Source: Rhodotorula mucilaginosa
Taxonomy: Eukaryota; Basidiomycota; Microbotryomycetes; Sporidiobolales; Sporidiobolaceae
Direction: 5' to 3'
Assembly (NCBI GenBank): GCA_034406715.1
Contig: CP137878.1
Location: forward strand, 310,001-374,000
DNA length: 64,000 nucleotides
The notes beneath the pieces are model-generated. The model was not told where the DNA came from. It ran no database searches and saw only the letters and a program-made list of their open reading frames with translations. The number at the start of each line of letters is the position of its first letter. Within the stretch, counting starts at the first letter, position 1. Shown in pieces: positions 46,676 to 64,000 of the stretch. A program made the translations under genes and the position numbers.

Positions 46676-48997
46676 CTATGGTGTGCAAATGGGCGCTTGG
46701 CCGCCTTCTCCAAAGTGCTGGTTGTAATCGGCGACCTGCACCCAGATCTGCAGACAGACTCGACGTCAGTCTGCATTCAAGACTTGCGAGAAGGGAATGG
46801 CTACGAGAAGACTCACGATGCAGTAACCGCCAGGGAAGGCCTGCGCGGCCGCGCCAAAGTCGAAAAAGTTGCGACCGATGTAGACCCCGCCCGGTTGGTT
46901 GTTGTTCGGATCAAAGTTGCCGCTGAAGCCGCTCGGGGTCCACCCTGCTCCCGGTTTGGTGTACGTCTGACCTGGCGAGTACTGCGATTTCGGGATCGCC
47001 TGGTAGTTGACGTGACCTCCCGCCGGGAAGGTTTGGCCTGCCGGGAGGGTGACTCCGGCGTAGCTGACGGTGTACGGCGTGCAGCCATCGGATCCGCTCT
47101 GCGCAAGTGAAGAATACCACGACTCGGGGATCAGAATGAGGGAAAGTGTAACCGAGCGTAGTGGAGGACTCACCGAGGCTTTGTTGCAGGCCTGAGACGG
47201 GGTCGCCGACGGTGTGGCGGACGAACTCGTCGTCGACGTGCTCTTGATCGTGGTCGTGTAGGTCACCGAGGGCACGACCGGCAAACATTGGCTGTAGTAC
47301 GGGTTGATGATGGCGCAAACGTAGCCGGAGGGGCAAGCGAGCTGCGCGAACCCGAGTCCGCCGCACTGCCCAAGAGCGGCAGCCAGCGTGCTCGAGGAAG
47401 GCGTAGGAGAGCTCGAAGTGGTCGTCGCAGACGACGTCTTGGACGAGGACGTTGTGGTCGTCGAAGACGACGTTTTCGACGAGGTAGTTGTGGTCGAGGA
47501 CGACGTCGTGGTCGAGGACGAGCCCGAGGCAGGCAGGCATTGAGAATCTGTCATCGAGTGAAACACACACAAGTCAGTTCATCCCTTCTCGGTCGCGCTG
47601 ATTTGCAGAAGCAAAGTGCTCACAGTAGTCGTTGGAGAAAGTGCAAGTCCAGCCCGAAGGGCAGCACGTCGCGCCGGACCAGCCGATTCCGCCGCATTGT
47701 CCGTAGCCAGTCTGCATGCCGGAGCACGCCGCGGACGGCGTCGCGCTAGCAGACGAAGTTGTGGTGGTCGTCGAGGTGGTCGTCGAGGTGGTCGATTTCG
47801 ACGTCGATGTCGTTGTCGAGGTTGTCGATGTCGATTTCGTTGTTGATGACGAAGAGGACGAGGAGGACGTTGAGCTCGGCGTCGGCGTCATCGACGATGA
47901 AGCAGCGGGAAGGCATTGCGAGTCTGCGGTGCAGTTGCAGCTCAGAGATCAGCTCGATGACCTCCTTGCCTTCAGCACATGCCAATGCAACACCAACTCA
48001 CAGTAATCGTTCGAGAACGTGCAAGTCCATCCCGAAGTACAGCAAGTCGGACCGCTCCAGCCGATGCCTCCGCATTGACCGTATGCGACCTGCAGACCTG
48101 AACAGCCCGTGGGCGTCGCGGAGGGCGAAGTCGTCGTGGTCGTCTTCGTCGTCGTAGTCGAAGAGCTGCTGGTCGTGGTCGTCGAAGACGACGACAGAGA
48201 CGTGCCGGGACTGCATTGCGACCCTGTTTTTCACCGCGAGAAGCAGAACATCAGCTTGCCGGATTCTCGAAGCGCGGCATGGAGCGGGCACCGACGCACA
48301 GTACGGATTGCTGTACGAGCAGTAATAGCCTGACGGACAGCACGTGTCGCCAGAGTATCCGACTCCTCCACACTGGCCGTACGCGACCTGGGCCCCCGTG
48401 CATCCGGACGGAGTCGGCGAAGCGCTCGAAGACGTCGAAGTTGTGGCCGAAGTGGTCGTCGTCGTCGCGACCGGCCTGCATTGCGAGTCTGTGCCCCGAT
48501 GATGAAAGGTTAGCTTGATACTTCAGCTTCGGGAACCGCACCTTGCGAAGCTCACAGTAGGCGTCCGAGACGACGCAAGTGTAACCCGGAATGCAGCAGG
48601 TGTCTCCGGACCAGCCCATTCCGCCGCATTGCTGGTACGCAGTGACAGTGCCTTGACAGACGACAGGGACCGAGGAAGGGGCTGCCCGCCGCGCGAGCTC
48701 GCCCTTGCCGTCGTCTTCGAGTCGGCGGAACCAGCGCCGGTGCGCCTCACGTGAATCTCGCACTTGGCGAGCTGCGTACGCCGGCGCTTCTCGGCGCGAC
48801 TCGTTCTTGATCCGTCGCCGCGAGAGATGCTTGCGGTGGTGGTGTACGGCACGACGAGCATGGTTGTTGTTGTGGTCGTGTTGGTTCAGGCGGGCTGGTC
48901 CCAGCGCCATTTCCCGCGGATCCGAAGGGGCGGTCGCGGCGGCGAGGGCAATCATGTTGAGCACCGCGGCCGGCCACAGCAACAGTCGCAGCGCCAT
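46676..48997 (-). CDS. Secreted multi-CBM1 (fungal cellulose-binding module) protein
   Basis: A signal peptide ([20 protein letters not shown], then ATA) is followed by a basic region and five CBM1-like modules: [18 protein letters not shown]..., [19 protein letters not shown]..., [19 protein letters not shown]..., [19 protein letters not shown]... and a more divergent [18 protein letters not shown].... Each ends in Y/W-S-Q-C. Ser/Thr-rich linkers separate them. A C-terminal region of about 110 residues ([76 protein letters not shown]) belongs to no family I recognise and has no glycoside-hydrolase signature. CBM1 binds crystalline cellulose or chitin. The protein may be a wall-attached adhesin or carbohydrate-binding scaffold. 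A phase-1 intron interrupts modules 1-4 at the same codon. Confidence 0.88.
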
Positions 48998-51685: not shown

Positions 51686-53904
51686 ATGCGCTTTCACGTG
51701 CACGCGGCGTCGTGTCAACTCTCGAGTCGTCCGCTCCTCGCAGGTGAGTGCACGCAGCCCAGAGGCAGTGAGCTACGTATGTAGAGTATTAGCCGTGCTC
51801 AACTCCGCCGCCGCTTGCTTGGATCCAGGGCTCTTCTCGCTCGCCTTGCTCGTCCTCATCTCGCACCTCGGCGGACCGAATCCCCGTCGACTCGCCTTCA
51901 ACAGGCACGACCAGGCCCACCAAGTCATGGGGTCGCCTGACCTGTACATTTCTTCGTCTTTGAACGTCGAACCGGATCCGGAAGTCGTCGTGCAACTCCT
52001 CGAAACGCTCGTCACCGTCCCGGACGACGAGGTCGGCGAGATTGCTATCTGTGCCAGTCTACGCAACGAAGGCAGGTTCATTGTCGAGTGGCTCCTCTAC
52101 GTGAGTTGTTCCCGCTTCGTGCGCCTAGGACTCGGAGCTGCATACGGATGCTCGGTCGAGAGAGGTCCGGAGAGGCTAACGACCTCGCCCGCTCCGCAAT
52201 GCTACCAGTATCGCGTCCTCGGAGTCGACCGCTTCTATCTGTGAGAACTTCACCGTCTCTTTGATCTGCAGGCAAGACGGCGAGCTGACTAGAATGCGGA
52301 TCTACGCGCAGCTACGATTCTGGCTCCGACGACGACACTCTCGAAAAGCTTCAACCTTGGCTGCGCGCCGGCACCGTCAAGCTCCATCGCTTCCGCCACG
52401 GTCAGCCCCTGCTTCTATCTGAGCCGAAGGATCGGTCCGGTCCGGTCAGAGAGGAAGACACGCTGACAAGTCGGCCACTCTGTAAAAATCGCGCAGACCA
52501 ACAGGGCCATTACCAGACCACCGCACTCGAGACTTGTTCGCGAACCTACGGACCCAAGACGGAATGGCTCGTCGAAGCAGACTGCGACGAATTCTACGTC
52601 GTCACCGAAGCGATGACCGCTTTGACTCGCACTCGCGGCAGTGGCGGCGACTTGACCGACATGACGCAACGACCGTTGGCGGCGCTCCTCGCCGGGAACT
52701 GGCTCTTCAAGAGCGCGGACGCTGTGGTCGTCTCTCGGTTGACTTGGAAGAACGCGGGGATCGACGAACTCCCGCCGGACGCGAGCGTCCTCGCGAGTCA
52801 GACGCTGAGGTACGAAACAAGTTCGCCCTAGGCGGTTCGAAGCTTCACCCAGTTGCTGACTTCGCAAAGGCCGTTGGCAGGGAGTACCAGCACTCGATTA
52901 CGTTTGAGAAGAACCTCTTCACCAAGGTCTGTTCGGCGGTACGCCGTACGGCACGAGTCAGGGCTTCTTTCTGACTCGCGCCACCTCTCTTTTCCCCCCT
53001 GCAGTCGATCCTGCATACGCGGCGCAAAGAAACCGGTTGGGTCATTCCCGGCGCACACTACCTGCGCAACCTTCATACACCGGTCAGCAAAGCCAAGGTC
53101 ATCACCGCCAACGGCCAGTCGGTCGAGGTTGAGCCGTTCCCGCCGAATGCGAAAGAGGACGAAGCGGCCGGGACGCAGTACTCGGGAAAGTATCCAGGCA
53201 ACCGCGTGTTTGAGCCTATCGTCCTATACCATTACGTCCAACGAGGTGTGTCGGGTCGCTCGTGTCACAGTCGATGGTTATCGTTTCGCTTGTACCGAAC
53301 TTGCGAAGGCTGATCATTTTTCGTCACACAGACCTGCAGGTTAGCCCGTGCCCGGAACAATAGCTAGATGGCGTCGTGATTGACTGAATTTCTGTACCTG
53401 ACCGCGAATCCCACAGGACTGCTACCGGAAGCTCAAGGTCGCTCAAAAGCTGCGCAAAGGCGGTTGGCGCGACAAGGCCGGCTCGGAAGGCTGTACAAGG
53501 TGAGCATTCGCCACCCGCCTCTCTTTCTCGTTGACCTGAGTACGGAACCTCTATAACCAGCTACGTCGTATACGAGGCCGAAGGCTCGTCGAAGGGGATC
53601 CACGACCAGAATGGCTTTTGTGAGCGTCTTTCTCATCGCCGCTTCCACTCAGAGTCAGACTCGCTGATCTTCGTGCCGTTCCGTAGTTGGCGCAGCCCTG
53701 AGAGACGTCAGCATGGCCGAAAGCTGGTTCGGACGGTACTTGCCGCTCCTGATCGTTGCGGCGAAAGAGGTCGAAGCTTTTGGTGGCGGCGGCGACGACG
53801 ACGAGGCGACGCAAATCGAGCCGCAAGTCGTCGATCCGCATCCGGACCTCGTTGCGCAGTGGACGGCAAAAGGGTTAGACCCGAAGAACGGTATGCCGAT
53901 GTAG
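51686..53904 (+). CDS. GT92-family glycosyltransferase, type II membrane protein
   Basis: Start MRFHVHAASCQLSSRPLL is joined by a phase-1 intron (GTGAGT...GATCCAG) to AGLFSLALLVLISHLGG, which forms a signal anchor. This choice explains both the membrane segment and the frame. The lumenal domain has GEIAICASLRNEGRFIVEWL, VLGVDRFYLYDSGSDDDTLE (donor-site D-x-GS-D-D), TYGPKTEWLVEADCDEFYVV (acidic metal-site motif), LREYQHSITFEKNLFTK, SILHTRRKETGWVIPGAHYL, VFEPIVLYHYVQR, DCYRKLKVAQKLRKGGWRDK. These match the GT92 (DUF23) family, which includes beta-galactosyltransferases acting on fucose or glycans in animals. About nine introns. It opens a run of six glycan-related genes and converges with the GT64 gene. 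Confidence 0.83.
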
Positions 53905-54056
53905 GTCTGCGGGAGGGCAGGTCTCTGCGCACGTGTAGTCAAGGAGGGGGGTTCGTTATCATCGCTCGAGCACAATCAATCAAATCTCGCCTGAAGAGGG
54001 CAGTCCCACCGCAATTCATTCCTTCATAACCATATTTGCGAGTACAGTCTATTCTT

Positions 54057-55824
54057 CTACAAGTCGAATGTAGGTCTTTGGTAGAACCATCGGTCGCAAA
54101 CGGGGTGGCCGTTTTCGAACCGTTCCCAGCACGCGTCCGTTAGCCGCCAACCGACTTTTCCCTTCAGTCTCAAGTCCCAGATACACCTGCAACATCGCAC
54201 AGCATGAGAAAGCGAGTCCCGACGATCCGAGGCGAGGAGAAGGAAAGACTCACCAAGCACCGCATTGATGCCGTGCCGAAGCCCAGAGGTCTGGATCTTG
54301 CTTGATCCCATCCGGCCCGCAGGTGGGTCGCTCAACCAACGCGTCGACCCAGTACGTGACGTCTCGGTTCAGCTCGGGGCAGTACTCGACGAGCTCTGCG
54401 GCGAGACCTCGCCGGCTGGTGCCCGAGGCTGGCTCGTTCGGACTAAATGCGAGACAACCGAGAGTAAGTGATCGTCCGCGCCGGATCGAAGGGGCGAAGG
54501 GACTAGACTCACACGAGCTCGGGACAAAGGTCGTGCGCCCTCGCGGTCGACATGCTGCGCCACCGAACGAGGCTGACTTCGGGCACGATCTCGTAGCTGT
54601 CGCCTTCGCTGTTGCCTGTCAACAACAAAGTCATAGAGGCGATCAGCTCCTGCCACTGGTAGGAGGAGAAAAATCACTAGCTTACAAACAGCCACCGTCT
54701 CTTCTTCCGGGCTCGCGTCCAGGTCAAAGTTTGGAGGGGTGAGAAAGTGTGAAAGGCATTCTGTGCGATGCTGCCACCGATCGGTCTGATCCGCAAGACC
54801 GGCCGAGTTGGTTCGGTCGAGTGGACTGGAGAGAGACCGCGGCTGGTCAGAATTCTGACGCCGCGAATCGTGTAAGCAGAGTTGCCTTACCTGCAGTAGG
54901 TTGCAAAATCGCCGATACTGTTTGGCGGCAGAGCGATCCGGAGTGGCGGCAGACCGGTGAGATTCGAGATGGCGAGGTTCAGGAGTAGATCGTCGCAGTG
55001 CGCCTGAGTGCGTAGCCAAGGTCACTTGCTGACTCGCACGAGAAGAGCGAATCCTCTGATAAATCACTTACCTCCTGTTGATCTACATACGTTCTCAGCG
55101 CGGCGAGTTCGGGCTCGCCGTACAAGGAAAGGAGGTCCGAGTGGCCGACGAGAGCTCGAGGGAGTACAAAGTTGTACGGCGAGGGACGGCTGACGAGCTC
55201 GTCGAGCACGTAGATGGTATCCTCGCGGCGCCGGACGAACGGACCGGACAGTCGATCTGGATGGTCTTTTTGGACCGTATGGAGGCAGCGGATGCCGCTC
55301 TGTGGGTACAACTCTCTGTCAGCAACGTTCGCTTCGGTGAGGTAGTACACGAGGTCGAAAGTTTGCTTACTTTGGAAAGCAACAAGTCATTGTCGAGGAC
55401 GACGACCGGTCCGGTCTGCGCGTACTCTGGTGCGAGAAGCCATCTGTATTCAATCCCCGACGTATCAGCTCACCGGACGGTCCAAGCAGTGCCAAGGAAG
55501 CAGAACTGACCTATTGTTCAAGCTGTTGGAAGCGGCACGAATCACCACGACCTTGTCCGGCAAGTCTTCCGGCGGTTCGTGATCCGGCTCGTTCCACACC
55601 AAGAGAATCGAGTGAATCACGTCTGCGTATTCGTCCGAGGCGTAGGCGCGCAAGATTCGTCGGAGCCAGTCCGATCGAAGTCCTTCGGTTTCATACGCCG
55701 TCAAGACGACCGTTAGCCGGTCCTCGTCGACGACCTGCGCGTCCCGCTTGAGGAGTACCGGCGTGCACAGTAGGCACATGAGCACCCCGAGTGCGATCAG
55801 GAGCTTGAAACGGCGCCGCGGCAT
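54057..55824 (-). CDS. GT64-like (exostosin C-terminal type) glycosyltransferase
   Basis: Type II membrane protein: MPRRRFKLLIALGVLMCLLC with a signal anchor, then DRLTVVLTAYETEGLRSDWL, RRILRAYASDEYADVIHSIL, LVWNEPDHEPPEDLPDKVVV, SLNNR spliced to WLLAPEYAQTGPVVVLDNDL (D-x-D donor motif), DTIYVLDELVSRPSPYNFVL, PRALVGHSDLLSLYGEPELA, YVDQQE spliced to AHCDDLLLNLAISNLTGLPP, and CIWDLRLKGKVGWRLTDACW. The order 'V-W-N-E-P', 'NNR', 'LD-D', 'G-HSD-LL' and 'CDDLLLN' matches the GT64 domain of EXT/EXTL proteins, which transfer N-acetylhexosamine to glycans. About seven introns are present. Acceptor and donor sugars cannot be told from sequence. The gene end is 152 bases from the convergent GT92 gene end. 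Confidence 0.78.
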
Positions 55825-56263
55825 CGCTCGTTCATGGGAAGCAGCGCCCCAGCGCCGAGACAAGAAGCAGAGGTGGCGGCGGGGAGGGACGGCAACCAAG
55901 TGTACAGATGCACCGGTTTTGTCCGTCAAAGCTATCACCGTACGAAGCCCTGCACACCGCTGCAAGCCAGGCTCGTGACGTCGACCCGCCGGGGCTTCCG
56001 ACCGATTTCGCCGCACGTGATCGACCGAGTCTCATCAAGAAACGGACCGTAGGCTATACTCATGTGTACAGCGTGTGATTTCGCAAGCGCCCATGCCTCT
56101 TTGCGTTTGGTCAGGTCTTTCGGGAAGGAGTCCGGGAGGAGAGACCGAGGTAATCCTGATATGCTTGAGATGAAACGTCAAGAAAGTGTCCATTGCCGCC
56201 TGCGACCGTAAGTTACACCCGTAGTACTGAAAGACAGCATTGCCGCGGTTCTCTCGTAGCCGA
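55825..56263. other. Intergenic, 439 bases, GT64 promoter side
   Basis: This gap lies between the end of the GDP-mannose dehydratase gene and the GT64 start, both minus strand. No feature is recognised. Confidence 0.5.
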
Positions 56264-58268
<2,005 letters not shown>

Positions 58269-58717
58269 GCTTGTGTATTTGAAGGTTCGAAGCGTGTCGG
58301 CGAACAGAGGGAGAGCAGAAAGGGCGACGAGGTGACGAGGTCGGGTGCGCGGTTGTATTGGCGTTGTCGAGTCTCGCTGGAAAAAACTCTGGACTTGGAG
58401 GGCTGATCAGACAGGAGTCGAGTGTCCAGTACAGCGGTGCGAGAGCGGCTGGACTCGGACGCGTGTACCGAGCAAAGCTGGCCAGGCGCCGCGACGTGTT
58501 TCTCCGGATTCGGCTTTTTGATCGAGAGCTTGCGAAAAGGCTGGGCGCTCGGATCGGTTCGAAAAAAAATGCGTGCACACGTACAGTAGATGCAGAGAGC
58601 TGGCAGGTGGAGCGATTTTGGTACAACACATGGGCGCTGAGTCTGACTATGGTCTATCGGAGCCTAGAAAAGGTCTTCCGCGGGTTCTAGATTTGCTCGA
58701 GTGCTCTCCGCCGGTAT
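58269..58717. other. Intergenic, 449 bases, GMD promoter side
   Basis: This gap lies between the SGNH gene 1 end and the GMD start, both minus strand. No feature beyond a short A run (gaaaaaaaatg near 58560) is recognised. Confidence 0.5.
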
Positions 58718-60265
58718 CTATGGCAACGACGGCGGCTCGACCCGCAAGTCGGCGAGGTGCATCGCCGTCCACATCAGGTCGGCCTGGGCAGAGTAGACTT
58801 CGGAGAGGAAGTGCACGCTGTCCTTTTTGAGCGAGAGCGGCGTCGTCCGGGTGAGGGAGAAAAAGTCGACGACGATCGTGTCGGGAAAGGTCGAGCGGAT
58901 GTACTCGTTCGCGACCGCGTTCTGCGCATTCTTGATGATCATGTTGTTGCGCATCGCCGACTGCGGGCCGTAGCTCTCCGGGATGGTGGAAGGCTCGGTG
59001 GCGGCCGTCAACAGGAGGTACGTCGACCGCGCCAAGCCGAACCGTTCTCGCAATCCGGCGTCGAGTCGGTCCATTCCGGCGCGCATCCCAGACTGGGTCA
59101 GGCCGGGGGCGTGCGAACCGAACGAGAGGAAGAGGTCCGTCACGCGGGTTTCGGTCGCGGTGAACGATTTCGGCCAGGCGGGTGTCGGCGCGAAGGGGAT
59201 CGAGTCGAGGTACGCAGCCAGTGATGAGAGGTTGATGGCGGCGAGGTTGCGGGCGTCGCTTGGGTCTTGTCGGACAAAGAACCACTGGAACGAGAGGACG
59301 ACGCCCGAGCCGGTTCCGTCGTGGAAGATTAATGTCGTCGGATGCTTCTCGTTTACGGCCGTATGCTCCGCCGCCAGCGTAAGGTTGAGCATCTCGGCGA
59401 GTCGAGTGACGAGGTACCGGCTGTTCGAGTCGCCGAGTACTTGGATCCAACGCAAATCCGGAGTGGCCGGAAGCGCGGAGCCGGCGGCGACGACGTTGCA
59501 GGGCATGCCCTCTTCGTCGGTAAAAACGAAGTCGTTCTCGGTCGCCATGTAGACAGCCGGTAAAGGGTCGAGCGTGGAACACGTCGAAGTGTCGGCGGAT
59601 CGACCGACCGCACGAGGGCCGTGTGCCAAGCGCACCCGCTCGCCCGTCTCGGAGCGGATCTCGTCGCCGCTGAACGCCGTGCCCGTATGCGCGACGTCTA
59701 ACGGCATACAGGCGGTGTCGTCACAGGGTTGACCGCTGTCGCCGCCGGGGTAGAAACCAAAATCGAGTCGAACCTCCAATTCGGTCGGACCGATAGTCGG
59801 CAGGAGCGGCGGAGGGAAGGACTCGTAGCGGTACACGCCGAGTTCGAGTTGGGACGGCGGATCCAGCAGGACGTGCGACTCGTTACCGTAACGCACCGTA
59901 ACGACGAAAGAAGCGGCCGCGAGCCCCGGACACTGGCGAAATGCTTCGTCGTCCGCCGGTCGAATGATGAGCGCGGGATTACGGCCTGGCGTCGCGTGCG
60001 CGACCCAGAACGACGCGTTGTTCCGTCCGTAGTACATCTCGAGTGTGTTGCATTTCCGACCAATACCGGCGACCGCAGACATTGTCCTCGGAACATAGGA
60101 GGATTCGAGGGCAACGACCGCCGACATAGCGATCACGGCGAGCGCGACTACGGCCAGGATGACATAGCTGGCTGTATTGTGGGGGTCACTAGTCAGTTGA
60201 CCGGCTTCGAGAATCTCGAGCGCACCGATCTGAAGGGGGACGTACTGCTGGTGCGCCGGTACCAA
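58718..60265 (-). CDS. Membrane-anchored SGNH/PC-esterase-like protein 1 (putative glycan acyltransferase or esterase)
   Basis: A single exon of 515 residues, unusual among the intron-rich neighbours. After about 30 cytosolic residues comes one membrane helix (ASYVILAVVALAVIAMSAVV), then a lumenal domain. It has a region with NASFWVAHATPGRNPALIIR and VYRYESFPPPLLPTIGPTEL, and then the SGNH-type blocks: LRWIQVLGDSNSRYLVTRLA (GDSxSR, nucleophile Ser) and, near the end, KKDSVHFLSEVYSAQADLMW (DxxH catalytic dyad). GDS plus a C-terminal DxxH is the signature of PC-esterase/TBL and Cas1-type proteins, which O-acetylate wall or capsule glycans. Whether it adds or removes an acyl group is not known. 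It lies next to GMD in the glycan gene run. Confidence 0.72.
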   Translation of the reverse strand: MVPAHQQYVPLQIGALEILEAGQLTSDPHNTASYVILAVVALAVIAMSAVVALESSYVPRTMSAVAGIGRKCNTLEMYYGRNNASFWVAHATPGRNPALIIRPADDEAFRQCPGLAAASFVVTVRYGNESHVLLDPPSQLELGVYRYESFPPPLLPTIGPTELEVRLDFGFYPGGDSGQPCDDTACMPLDVAHTGTAFSGDEIRSETGERVRLAHGPRAVGRSADTSTCSTLDPLPAVYMATENDFVFTDEEGMPCNVVAAGSALPATPDLRWIQVLGDSNSRYLVTRLAEMLNLTLAAEHTAVNEKHPTTLIFHDGTGSGVVLSFQWFFVRQDPSDARNLAAINLSSLAAYLDSIPFAPTPAWPKSFTATETRVTDLFLSFGSHAPGLTQSGMRAGMDRLDAGLRERFGLARSTYLLLTAATEPSTIPESYGPQSAMRNNMIIKNAQNAVANEYIRSTFPDTIVVDFFSLTRTTPLSLKKDSVHFLSEVYSAQADLMWTAMHLADLRVEPPSLP

Positions 60266-61087
60266 TTGGTCGACCTGCTCGCCCGCGAAAGAGCGCCGTC
60301 CTCGGCGCCAGTCTGTAGCGGATCATAACCCAGCTTTCGCGGCGCAGTCATAATGCATATGCGTAGCAGCGCGACCCACCGTCTCCGCCTCTGTGTAGCG
60401 GGATGCTTCGACTAGAGCTGGAGGAGATGAGGAACAGCGCCAGCGCGCGCCGGAACAATATCGGGAAGCCTCCGGCTGCACGCACACCAGCAGGCCGGCA
60501 CGTGGAGCGGTTATAACTTCCAAGCCAAGCCACGATCGTCGCTCCGGAAGACGCTGCTCGCGAGCTAGCGGGCGATAGCGTCGCTATCATTCTGGGGCGC
60601 GATGAGCGAGCGAGCAACGTTGGTGCGCGGTCGGCGGGCAATTCTTATCCTGCGGTTGAGCAACACGGCCTGGTCGCAGCAGGCAACAATATACACGCGT
60701 ATACTCGTACTGACTGGACGAGCTGTGCAGCGAGTTGCTTACGATAGCTTGGCGAGAGAGCTCGAGAAGAATCAAATGTCGTCCCGCGCACGACGATCCG
60801 CGAGGAACAAAGGATCGCGGTCGGCCGACTCGGCACATATATATAGCGCGCGGTACCGGTGGGCAGAATCACCTTAAGGCAGAATCCGACCAGCGTACTT
60901 AAGCTGCTTGACTTGGCGAAAACGGCAAGTAACATAAGTTACGTGTGATGAACTTGAAACGCGGGGTTGAACTCTGCCTGTAACGGTTTGGGTATGTAAC
61001 CGGCGCGAGTGTAATCATTCTTATGAAATTAGCCAGCTCTTTGCAGGCAGAGCTTGTACGCCCCTCGCAGGATCGTGTACGAAGGCG
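60266..61087. promoter_or_regulatory. Divergent promoter region between the two SGNH genes, with candidate TATA element
   Basis: This 822-base region lies between two divergent starts. TATATATA at 60838-60845 lies about 240 bases upstream of the plus-strand gene, and the motif is also a TATA candidate for minus-strand transcription. The stretch is otherwise without recognisable features. Open frames on both strands are short. Confidence 0.4.
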
Positions 61088-62838
61088 ATGATAGAGCTCC
61101 GACGGTCGGAAGACGGCGAGGCTGCCGAACCAAGCCGTGCGCCGTACCTCGACGACGAAGCTGAGAACGGCGAGGACGACTTTGGCGGCGAGCGGGTCGG
61201 CGAAGCTGGGATTCCGCTGCTCTCGGCTGCGTCGGAGCGAACACCGCAGCCGGCGTTGGCTCGGCATAGGGAGACGACTCCGATCTACCGGAGGAGAAGC
61301 ACGCTCCTCGCGGCGATTTGCGCTGTCGCCGTTCTAGTCGTGCTGTCGGGTCTCGCAGCAGTCAAGACAGGGTGAGTGGTGGGACGGAGGCCGGTATGGC
61401 AGCCTCGACGACGCCGCTAACTGCTCTCCCGCCGACGCACAGACTCGCCGACGGTCCGTCGCGGAATTTCCAACTCTTGCAGCGGAGGGTCGTCGCGAAA
61501 CTCAAGAATGGCGAGAGGCTACGGATCGGTATCGTCGGCGGCAGTATCTCGGCCATGCCGAACGCGTACGGGGACCACCTCGTCGAGTGGCTGAATCGGA
61601 ATTGGCCGGCGCGCGATGGGAGCCAGCACGAAGTGATCAACATGGCGATTCCGGGCAGCGAGTCGGGCGTCGCCAGCATCTGCCTCGGGAGCTTCTTCCG
61701 CTACAGCCCTTCGCGCGACGCCGAGCCGCCGATCGACCTCCTCCTCGTCGAGTTTGCGTACAACGACAATGGGATCTTGCCCGGGTCCGAAGGCGAGACC
61801 GACTTTACCATCTCGAGGACCTCCAACTACGAGCGGATCTTCCGTTCCGCACTCTCGTGGCCGATACCTGCGATGGTTATCGAACTCGTCTCGTACTCGG
61901 GCGACGTCCGTCGTCCGCCCCTGCGCAACTCGTTCCTGTCCTCGTCCGGTTACAGCCACGCGCTCGTCGCGCAGCACTACTCGGTGCCGGTCATCGACTT
62001 TGCTCAAACCATGTACAGCTGGCCACAACTTGACGACCTCGCCGGCTTTTATGTCGACAAGGGAATCCATCTCTCGCAGCCGGGACACATCCTCACGGCG
62101 AGCTTGATCGCGCGCGAGCTGATCCTGCAACTCTCGATCGGAACCAACGCCTCGTCTTCGGTCATCGACCTTTCCAAGGTGCATCCCGACAACAGCGGCC
62201 CGAGCTGGCCTCACGTCGCGGCGTGGAGCGCGCAGCCCTTCGCTCCGACGCCCGAGGCGCCGTCTCCGGATGCGCCGCTGTCGCCCCTTCCCCCGGCCCG
62301 CTGGCAGTACGGGCCGATGCGACAGTGGGAGTGCCTGTCGAGTCAGATCAACCATACAAAGGCGGCACTCGAGAACTCTGCCGTGGTGCAGGACGGGTGG
62401 GAGATGATGATCGACCAATCCGACGGCGGAAGGACTCGAAGTAAATCGCGTCCGGGCTTCACTGCCAACTCGACCGACTCGCACCTCGTCTACGATCTCG
62501 ACGGACGAGGGACGCAGGGCCCCACCGCGCTCCTGTACCGCCGGTCGTGGCGTGAGTCTGCCGACGCGCTGGTTTGGCTCGACCAAGACAAGTCCGCGGA
62601 CGGTGCGAAGCGCCCGAGTGGACCTTCTTGTCCTGAATCTCCCGTACGCCTTCACGGCACATGGACGACTCCGACGACCCAGATGGTGCTCGACGAGATC
62701 TGCGGCGGCGACAGCAGCTGGACGAGCAAGGCCGACTCGCAGAAGCCAACATACTTGCACGTCGTCACGGTCGAGCCGGATCGCGAAGAGAAGGAGGGCA
62801 AGTACTTCAAGAGTTATGGGTTCGCGGTTGCAGGGTAG
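61088..62838 (+). CDS. Membrane-anchored SGNH hydrolase-like protein 2
   Basis: Two exons (61088-61371, 61443-62838) give 559 residues. About 75 acidic cytosolic residues (MIELRRSEDGEAAEPSRAP...) precede one membrane helix (STLLAAICAVAVLVVLSGLA). The lumenal domain carries the SGNH blocks in order: LRIGIVGGSISAMPNAYGDH (block I, GGSIS), EVINMAIPGSESGVASICLG (block II Gly), PIDLLLVEFAYNDNGILPGS (block III, ...E-x-x-x-ND), and GFYVDKGIHLSQPGHILTAS (block V, D...H). A C-terminal beta-rich region (SDGGRTRSKSRPGFTANSTD, YRRSWRESADALVWLDQDKS) follows. This layout occurs in basidiomycete SGNH proteins thought to act on surface glycans. The gene is divergent from SGNH protein 1. Hydrolase versus acyltransferase is unresolved. 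Confidence 0.77.
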
Positions 62839-63208
62839 AACAGCTATATAGAAGTGTACAGAGCAGATTAGAGTCATAGCGTTTGCATCGAGCTGGACGA
62901 AAGATTATGCCTTTTTTGCGCCAGTCGGCGGCTTTTGCGGAATGGCACGACTGGCTGCGGAGCACACTCAAGCGGCTGGAAGAGAGAAGGCGATGTGAGG
63001 GCGATGCTTGCGATTCCGAAACGTTGCTCTACAACATGGCTGCTCGTGAGAATTGCATCTACCTATTTTGTCGGTCCTTCCCAGGTTTTCCAACCCCGAG
63101 AGCATCCCATGGGTCCACCTTCGACTCGCTCCCTGGCGGCGCAGAGTGCAGGTTCGCAGTAAGCACCCCGTCGCATATATGCGCGTCCTGAGCGGGGCTC
63201 GTATACAC
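62839..63208. other. Convergent intergenic region, 370 bases
   Basis: This gap lies between SGNH protein 2 (plus) and the GT90 gene (minus). It should hold both 3' UTRs. Nothing else is recognised. Confidence 0.5.
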
Positions 63209-64000
63209 TCACCGTGAGAGTTGGGTCTTGCAAAAGTCAACATCGACGTCCGAATGGTCGAGTTTGACGTCTGCCGCCTGCAGGTCTGCGTATTGGGACA
63301 GGATCGCCGCCAGCTGTTCCTTTGCCGCCTGCTTCGAGAGGTACGCGTCGGCAAAGGCCTCGGCGTGTTTGACGATCGACCGCGCATAGTCGTCGTGCTC
63401 GCGGAGCCAGCGGACCTTGTCGAGGAGGTCGCTGAAGTCCTCGGCGATCGGGACGTAGTGGACCCACGGAACGAGGAGCTTGTTGTGGGTGCAGAACCAA
63501 GCAGACTCGGTGAGGAGGGGTACGCTGCCGGTCTGTAAGATGGCAACGCCCCGCGACGAACCGAGGCCGCCGTCGATGTCGATGATGTACTTGAACTTGC
63601 TTTGCTCGTAGAATGACATCGGCTCGGAGAGCTGGATGCCCGCCTTCCGCAGGATGTCATCGTTTGTCGGCTGCGGGTAGAAACCCGTCTCAGGGTCGTC
63701 CGGACCGGCAGTGAGCGGGGGCATCGGCTTGGGCCGGAGCCTCGTCAAGCCAAAGTTGAGCATATCCTGATGCGCGTTCGCAAGTTGTACGGCTCGGAAG
63801 CGCGGGTTCGAATTCCAGTTGTCGGCGGCGAACGAAAAGCTGGCCGTGCCGCGAAAGATGACCTTGTCGACCTTTTCCTCCCATGGAGCGAGAGTTGACC
63901 GATTCGGCCAGACATAGTTGCCATTCGATCCATAGGCGACCGGATCAGGGATCGGAATGTCGAAATGTACGTCGGACGATCGCAAGGAGAAGATCAAGTA
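63209..64000 (-). CDS. GT90-family (CAP10-type) glycosyltransferase, C-terminal part (5' end outside window)
   Basis: The last 263 residues of a GT90 protein are present. Visible motifs are FDIPIPDPVAYGSNGNYVWP, KVDKVIFRGTASFSFAADNW (the 'W/F-RG' block), NSNPRFRAVQLANAHQDMLN, PMSFYEQSKFKYIIDIDGGL (the K-Y-x-I-x-IDG block), GSSRGVAILQTGSVPLLTES, LLVPWVHYVPIAEDFSDLLD (PW-HYVP block), and HAEAFADAYLSKQAAKEQLA. This is the core of Cap10/POGLUT-type enzymes. In Cryptococcus CAP10 is needed for capsule formation, and relatives transfer xylose or glucose. TGA at 63211-63209. The protein continues beyond the right edge, so its membrane anchor is not seen. It closes the visible part of the glycan gene run. 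Confidence 0.88.
   Translation of the reverse strand, partial: YLIFSLRSSDVHFDIPIPDPVAYGSNGNYVWPNRSTLAPWEEKVDKVIFRGTASFSFAADNWNSNPRFRAVQLANAHQDMLNFGLTRLRPKPMPPLTAGPDDPETGFYPQPTNDDILRKAGIQLSEPMSFYEQSKFKYIIDIDGGLGSSRGVAILQTGSVPLLTESAWFCTHNKLLVPWVHYVPIAEDFSDLLDKVRWLREHDDYARSIVKHAEAFADAYLSKQAAKEQLAAILSQYADLQAADVKLDHSDVDVDFCKTQLSR

What the first reader, a model, noticed from the sequence alone, without database searches (positions are those of the whole stretch)
51686..64000. Candidate surface-glycan (capsule/exopolysaccharide) gene cluster
Six neighbouring genes cover a whole glycan-building logic: GDP-mannose 4,6-dehydratase for a 6-deoxy-sugar donor, three glycosyltransferases of different families (GT92, GT64, GT90/CAP10 type), and two type II membrane SGNH/PC-esterase-like proteins suited to O-acyl decoration. 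No unrelated gene interrupts them. Clustering of glycan genes is not the rule in yeasts, and this combination is not one I know as a described fungal cluster. The GT90 gene runs off the edge, so the cluster may extend further. It could make a fucose- or rhamnose-containing, acylated exopolysaccharide or protein glycan.
Basis: partly seen in the sequence, partly recalled or inferred. Interest (0 to 1): 0.85.

Follow-up and report, generated by a model that had tools for sequence, protein, structure and literature searches.

The report
Yeast surface-sugar assembly gene cluster
A red yeast carries, side by side, genes that look able to help make a fucose building block, join sugars into a surface or secreted glycan, and add and trim acetyl groups on it; clusters of this general kind are known in moulds for another polymer, but this set of enzymes is different and untested.

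Summary
The six genes are real and in place, but the cluster runs about 7.8 kb past the window edge (51.7 to about 71.8 kb): GT92, X1, GT64, GDP-mannose 4,6-dehydratase (GMD), SGNH1, SGNH2, GT90a, GT90b, X2, GT92b. The host is probably a Rhodotorula near R. dairenensis. GDP-L-fucose is the likelier product: a GDP-L-fucose synthase gene lies on another contig, and published R. mucilaginosa exopolysaccharides contain fucose. The cluster GMD is a faster-evolving but constrained duplicate of a conserved GMD on contig C3. SGNH1 has no Pfam match; its low-confidence model is closest to the plant xylan O-acetyltransferase XOAT1. A homologue of SGNH2 is closest, over both domains, to a bacterial acetyl-mannan esterase (RiCE17). 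I read this head-to-head pair as acetyl writer and editor of a mannose-rich, fucose-bearing glycan made in the Golgi. SGNH1 and SGNH2 have adjacent locus tags in R. pacifica and R. dairenensis; synteny of the other genes and co-expression could not be tested. No fucosyltransferase was recognised in the cluster. New variant of a known kind (fungal polysaccharide cluster); function inferred.

The parts
51686..53904 (+). GT92-type glycosyltransferase (474 aa, 10 introns), N-terminal hydrophobic segment
   Evidence: model; PF13704 1.1e-16 and PF01697 4e-12; hydropathy peak 2.08 at residue 17
54057..54656 (-). X1: C-terminal exons related to X2, either a small separate gene or a C-terminal extension of the GT64 gene; start unresolved
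   Evidence: three-frame reading, spliced by hand; X2 search hits C15:364066-364224 at 40% identity, 1.8e-7
54887..55824 (-). GT64 glycosyltransferase, N-terminal hydrophobic segment; C-terminal end of the model uncertain
56264..58268 (-). GDP-mannose 4,6-dehydratase, cluster copy (390 aa, 12 exons; one acceptor corrected by hand)
   Evidence: PF16363 4.3e-152 (uncorrected model); TIGR01472 600.8 bits against cut-off 415
58718..60265 (-). SGNH1: PC-esterase-like motifs, XOAT1-like predicted fold, one N-terminal hydrophobic segment; translation start unresolved
60266..61087 (.). shared 5' region between divergently transcribed SGNH1 and SGNH2
   Evidence: gene orientations; no shared upstream word survives correction
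61088..62838 (+). SGNH2: GDSL-type, CE17-like two-domain acetyl esterase with N-terminal hydrophobic segment (559 aa, 1 intron)
63209..64000 (-). GT90a (CAP10 family), cut by the window edge; whole gene 63209-64800 in extended coordinates. Beyond the edge: GT90b 65418-66867 (-), X2 67441-68185 (+), GT92b 69731 to about 71787 (-)
   Evidence: PF05686 9e-22 and 1.5e-24; the GT92b model is truncated and below cut-off for PF13704 (25.7 against 27.5 bits) but matches GT92a at 174 of 331 residues

Best explanation
A Rhodotorula glycan-biosynthesis cluster of about 20 kb and eight to ten genes. Cytosolic GMD makes GDP-4-keto-6-deoxymannose, which a GDP-L-fucose synthase encoded elsewhere turns into GDP-L-fucose. 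Membrane-anchored, Golgi-type GT92, GT64 and GT90 enzymes build a mannose- and galactose-rich glycan or polysaccharide that carries fucose. SGNH1 (PC-esterase/XOAT1-like) writes O-acetyl groups and SGNH2 (CE17-like, two-domain) removes or repositions them while the polymer is made; the product becomes exopolysaccharide or wall glycan. Shown: gene content and order, domain families of the GTs and GMD, duplications, best-matching folds, presence of a GDP-L-fucose synthase gene. Inferred: that the genes act together, the linkages, which GT uses which donor, the direction of the two acetyl enzymes, Golgi location.
For: Gene content and order. GDP-L-fucose synthase gene. The cluster GMD pairs with the C3 GMD (support 97/93; end branches 0.11 and 0.019) and stays constrained (dN 0.052, dS 0.83; of sites kept in at least 95% of 19 other rows, one changed in the cluster copy, Val to Ile, none in the C3 copy). 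SGNH1: GDSNSR and FGSH in 7 of 7 homologues, Asp and His of DxxH invariant; XOAT1 leads the VIA-align list. SGNH2: RiCE17, an acetyl-mannan esterase with a CBM35 (PMC9487903, PMC13276840, passages), is the best match by profile and by fold. SGNH1/SGNH2 adjacent by tag in two named relatives. A GT92 on the same contig has a C-terminal stretch with PC-esterase-like motifs. A Cas1p-type acyltransferase gene is on C16, an acetyl-CoA transporter gene about 20 kb right of the cluster. Two R. mucilaginosa polysaccharides contain fucose, mannose, galactose and glucose (passages).
Confidence: 0.55

Rival explanations
1. The cluster decorates protein-bound glycans (N- or O-glycans) in the Golgi rather than building a free polysaccharide.
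For: 7 of 9 proteins scored have an N-terminal hydrophobic segment as Golgi enzymes do. GALT-1 of C. elegans beta-galactosylates core alpha-1,6-fucose of N-glycans (PMC6422873, passages; that GALT-1 is a GT92 is recalled), which would link GT92 to a fucosylated acceptor. No GT of a processive, polymerase type was recognised in the cluster (recalled family knowledge).
Against: SGNH2's closest structure acts on polymeric mannan, SGNH1's on xylan; [quoted passage not shown]
Confidence: 0.25
2. No functional unit: C15 is a hot spot where glycosyltransferase genes duplicate and stay near each other, and the GMD copy landed there by chance.
For: 4 of 8 GT90/GT64/GT92 loci found outside the cluster also lie on C15, 3.4% of the genome (expected 0.26, P 7e-5; post hoc). 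GT90 and GT92 are duplicated locally. The C15/C3 GMD duplication is younger than the split from the other species in the tree.
Against: Donor enzyme, three GT families and two SGNH enzymes are not one family; other genes flank but do not interrupt the block; SGNH1 and SGNH2 show no sequence similarity beyond nine residues yet are adjacent in relatives.
Confidence: 0.2
3. SGNH1 and SGNH2 are both esterases (or both transferases), not a writer/editor pair. (A variant of the best explanation; its odds are not exclusive of it.)
For: The SGNH fold serves esterases and transferases alike; peptidoglycan O-acetyltransferases and O-acetylesterases are among the fold matches of both.
Confidence: 0.3

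Closest known systems
Galactosaminogalactan (GAG) cluster of Aspergillus
   Same: A physical cluster of polysaccharide genes in a fungus with an acetyl-modifying step (PMC4817252: title and start of abstract in the listing, five coregulated genes, deacetylation)
   Different: Here GT92, GT64, GT90 and a 6-deoxy-sugar donor enzyme; basidiomycete; co-regulation not shown. The enzyme families of the GAG cluster are recalled, not compared here
PC-esterase/TBL family, XOAT1 (6CCI)
   Same: GDS and DxxH motifs, N-terminal anchor plus C-terminal catalytic domain, first VIA match
   Different: No Pfam PF13839 match; Tyr in place of an active-site Asn of XOAT1; large extra N-terminal region
RiCE17 acetyl-mannan esterase (6HFZ/6HH9), CE17
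   Different: Fungal, with a predicted membrane anchor, among biosynthetic genes; PMC13276840 (passage) says CE17 has been described only in Bacillota; 23% identity
Capsule genes of Cryptococcus (CAP10-type GT90, Cas1p)
   Same: GT90 family and the theme of O-acetylation
   Different: The Cas1p-type gene lies on C16, outside the cluster; relatives of other CAP genes were not searched

Membership tests
Fungal polysaccharide gene cluster (GAG-like kind) | Genes physically clustered | tested here: met
Fungal polysaccharide gene cluster (GAG-like kind) | Co-regulated expression | not testable with these tools
   no expression data; upstream words of 9 cluster genes against 29 others gave nothing that survives correction
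Fungal polysaccharide gene cluster (GAG-like kind) | Conserved gene order in relatives | tested here: inconclusive
   SGNH1/SGNH2 adjacent by tag in R. pacifica (007051/007050) and R. dairenensis (006301, 006302/006303); GMD tags far from SGNH2 in R. toruloides and R. paludigena; other genes not tested
GDP-mannose 4,6-dehydratase | Equivalog profile above cut-off | tested here: met
   TIGR01472 600.8 against 415; PDB 1t2a 1.1e-168
GDP-L-fucose synthase (gene on C10) | Equivalog profile above cut-off | tested here: not met
   NF047922 164.7 against 500 bits with a partial fungal model, a bacterial/archaeal model; but PDB GDP-L-fucose synthases 1.6e-106
PC-esterase (TBL/Cas1p N-terminal) for SGNH1 | GDS and DxxH catalytic motifs | tested here: met
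   7 of 7 homologues
PC-esterase (TBL/Cas1p N-terminal) for SGNH1 | Trp/His in place of the Asn of GxND | tested here: inconclusive
   FGSH in 7 of 7; equivalence of position is my inference from passages of PMC2824669
PC-esterase (TBL/Cas1p N-terminal) for SGNH1 | Pfam PF13839 match | tested here: not met
   0 of 7 homologues at E <= 1; catalytic part alone also none
PC-esterase (TBL/Cas1p N-terminal) for SGNH1 | XOAT1-like fold | tested here: inconclusive
PC-esterase (TBL/Cas1p N-terminal) for SGNH1 | O-acetyltransferase activity | not testable with these tools
   no assay
CE17 for SGNH2 | SGNH domain plus C-terminal CBM35-like domain | tested here: met
   R. pacifica homologue: both domains aligned to 6hh9/6hfz; CBM35 structures at Foldseek ranks 44 and 50
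CE17 for SGNH2 | 2-O-acetyl-mannan esterase activity | not testable with these tools
   no assay
GT90, GT64, GT92 | Pfam match above gathering cut-off | tested here: met
   GT90a, GT90b, GT64, GT92a; the truncated GT92b model falls short (25.7 against 27.5 bits)

The most novel reading that the evidence does not exclude
A dedicated basidiomycete glycan cluster with its own GMD isoform and an internal acetyl writer/editor pair, in which a eukaryotic, membrane-anchored CE17-type esterase works during synthesis rather than breakdown, plus a new family of small anchored Cys/Trp-rich proteins (X1/X2) that serve it.
Probability: 0.3. Interest if true: 0.75.

Novelty: new variant of a known kind. Interest (0 to 1): 0.55.

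Why it matters
In the passages I saw, the work on fucose-bearing Rhodotorula exopolysaccharides named no gene cluster for them; this gives a list of ten candidates to delete one by one. If right it is another chemical type of polysaccharide cluster in fungi, it puts a CE17-architecture esterase into a eukaryotic biosynthetic setting, and it shows a duplicated GMD kept beside the genes it would feed.

Tried and rejected
Rhamnose as product: not favoured but not excluded. Of eight epimerase/dehydratase loci fetched, one is a GDP-L-fucose synthase and none of the other seven was recognised, by eye, as a rhamnose-type reductase; 19 of the 35 candidates were not scored. One R. mucilaginosa report gives rhamnose as 0.000, but a Rhodotorula sp. 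polysaccharide contains rhamnose as well as fucose (PMC8419279, start of abstract in the listing).

GDP-L-fucose synthase, transporter or fucosyltransferase just beyond the edge: none seen among gene models of the 36 kb to the right, only part of which were scanned with Pfam; transporters were not searched in the genome. X2: no Pfam match at E <= 0.5. Shared upstream words: none after correction. The C3 GMD as part of a second cluster: two of its neighbours are a PhoD-type phosphatase and an amino-acid permease by Pfam, the rest were judged by eye. One search used a wrong Pfam accession (PF13664) and says nothing. SGNH1 as a plain GDSL esterase: less favoured because XOAT1 leads the VIA list, but the model is weak; sequence searches of the PDB with SGNH1 found nothing credible.

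Literature: the searches aimed at this cluster or at Rhodotorula exopolysaccharide genes (listings only, top rows) showed no paper that describes it. Searches were for comparison systems. PMC6476726 (passages) notes more GT90 genes in R. mucilaginosa JGTA-S1. Of every paper cited I saw a listing, the start of an abstract or passages, not the whole text.

Full report
What is there. The window is bases 310001-374000 of contig C15 (682,513 bases) of a 20.35-Mb, 19-contig genome. Homologues of SGNH2 place it in or near Rhodotorula: 81% identity to R. dairenensis and 76% to R. pacifica; Rhodotorula genomes are about 20 Mb (PMC6476726, passage). R. mucilaginosa or a sister species is an inference. 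I wrote a small intron-aware gene finder, trained it on 135 kb of this genome and checked chosen products with Pfam. GT90b and GT92b follow past the edge in its models; X1 and X2 were found by hand. To the left lies a phytochelatin synthase (PF05023 5.8e-44), to the right a cyclophilin/WD40 protein (PF00160 5.2e-50), then, among others, a metallophosphoesterase, an MSP-domain protein and a UFD2 homologue. About 20 kb right of the cluster an acetyl-CoA transporter gene (PF13000 2.1e-143) sits next to a long GT64 gene.

More than chance. The exon-wise genome searches gave five GT90 matches, five GT64 matches at three loci and three GT92-type (PF13704) matches at three loci, one of them (the window's) below cut-off. 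They missed two loci known from the region itself (the window's GT64 and GT92b), so counts are lower bounds. Random placement of 5, 4, 4 and 2 loci put all three GT families within 20 kb of a GMD in 0 of 200,000 draws. Of the eight GT loci found outside the cluster four are on C15 (expected 0.26; P 7e-5). Both numbers are after the fact, since the families came from the finding.

Donor sugar. The cluster GMD scores 600.8 bits against TIGR01472 (cut-off 415). A second GMD is on C3. The two share 361 of 390 residues; a tree of 21 rows pairs them (97/93), with branches of 0.11 to the cluster copy and 0.019 to the C3 copy. dN is 0.052 and dS 0.83; of sites kept in at least 95% of 19 other rows one is changed in the cluster copy. 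I read this as a constrained duplicate now sitting in the cluster, C3 being the conserved copy. A GDP-L-fucose synthase gene is on C10: its PDB matches are GDP-L-fucose synthases, best 1.6e-106 (the best ones are human by recall). Its partial model scored 164.7 bits against the prokaryotic equivalog, under the cut-off of 500. Two reports on R. mucilaginosa polysaccharides list fucose, mannose, galactose and glucose; in one, fucose is terminal and rhamnose 0.000 (PMC7760879, PMC5768876, passages). Rhodotorula sp. RY1801 polysaccharide contains rhamnose and fucose (PMC8419279, start of abstract). R. toruloides exopolysaccharide was reported as glucose, galactose and mannose with little xylose and ribose (PMC12628781, passage). 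Fucosyltransferases: two O-FucT matches below cut-off on C5 and C11; none for GT10, a search that rang in no control; XG_FTase and FUT8 types, reported in Pucciniomycotina (PMC10481521, passages), were not searched.

Small genes. X2 (193 aa, one hydrophobic segment) and the X1 exons share a Cys/Trp-rich C-terminal region; a third relative lies at C15:152.7 kb (4.9e-5) and a doubtful one on C1 (E 0.08). No Pfam match. An accessory role is a guess.

Relatives. Locus tags place SGNH1 and SGNH2 next to each other in R. pacifica and in R. dairenensis, where SGNH1 is doubled. Unnamed rows P0004 and P0139 list the same longest contig length (90,684), which suggests a third case. No SGNH1 row came from R. 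toruloides or R. paludigena, and the tagged GMD rows of those species (001960, 000231) are far from their SGNH2 tags (004315, 006357). Rows are clusters at 90% identity and the GMD list shows 120 of 7,999, so a second GMD copy could be hidden. Synteny of GT92, GT64, GT90, GMD and the X genes could not be tested with the collections at hand.

Judgement. The cluster is real and larger than reported. A unit that makes a fucose-bearing, O-acetylated, mannose-rich surface or secreted glycan is the best reading, at about 0.55. Its weak points are the missing fucosyltransferase, no expression data, partial synteny, the low-confidence SGNH1 model, no report of O-acetyl in the R. mucilaginosa polymers in the passages I saw, and the general richness of this contig in GT genes.

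Noticed in passing
window 58718-60265 (-): SGNH1 has no in-frame ATG where the proteins of relatives begin; the true start (upstream exon or other) is unresolved.
   Followed up: partly
G000 C15:132384-135723, L029/L030: GT92 protein of 1028 aa (model) with a C-terminal PC-esterase-like stretch (PF13839 E 0.02, below cut-off): a possible GT/acetyl-enzyme fusion.
   Followed up: partly
extended window coordinates 92050-98542 (C15:402050-408542): Acetyl-CoA transporter gene (PF13000) directly beside a gene for a 945-aa GT64 protein.
   Followed up: no
window 54057-54656 (-), extended 67441-68185 (+), G000 C15:152664-152864: Small proteins or exons with a shared Cys/Trp-rich region, three loci on C15 (a fourth, on C1, is doubtful), no Pfam match.
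   Followed up: partly
window 47746-48997 (-): Predicted gene with a CBM1 match (1.7e-9) and similar repeats in neighbouring frames; PMC6476726 (passage) reports CBM1 only in the endophytes it compared.
   Followed up: no
G000 C14:628200-631000, L027: Distant SGNH1 paralogue (135 of 406 aligned residues identical), also without a Pfam match.
   Followed up: partly
G000 C15: Half (4 of 8) of the GT90/GT64/GT92 loci found outside the cluster lie on this one contig.
   Followed up: partly
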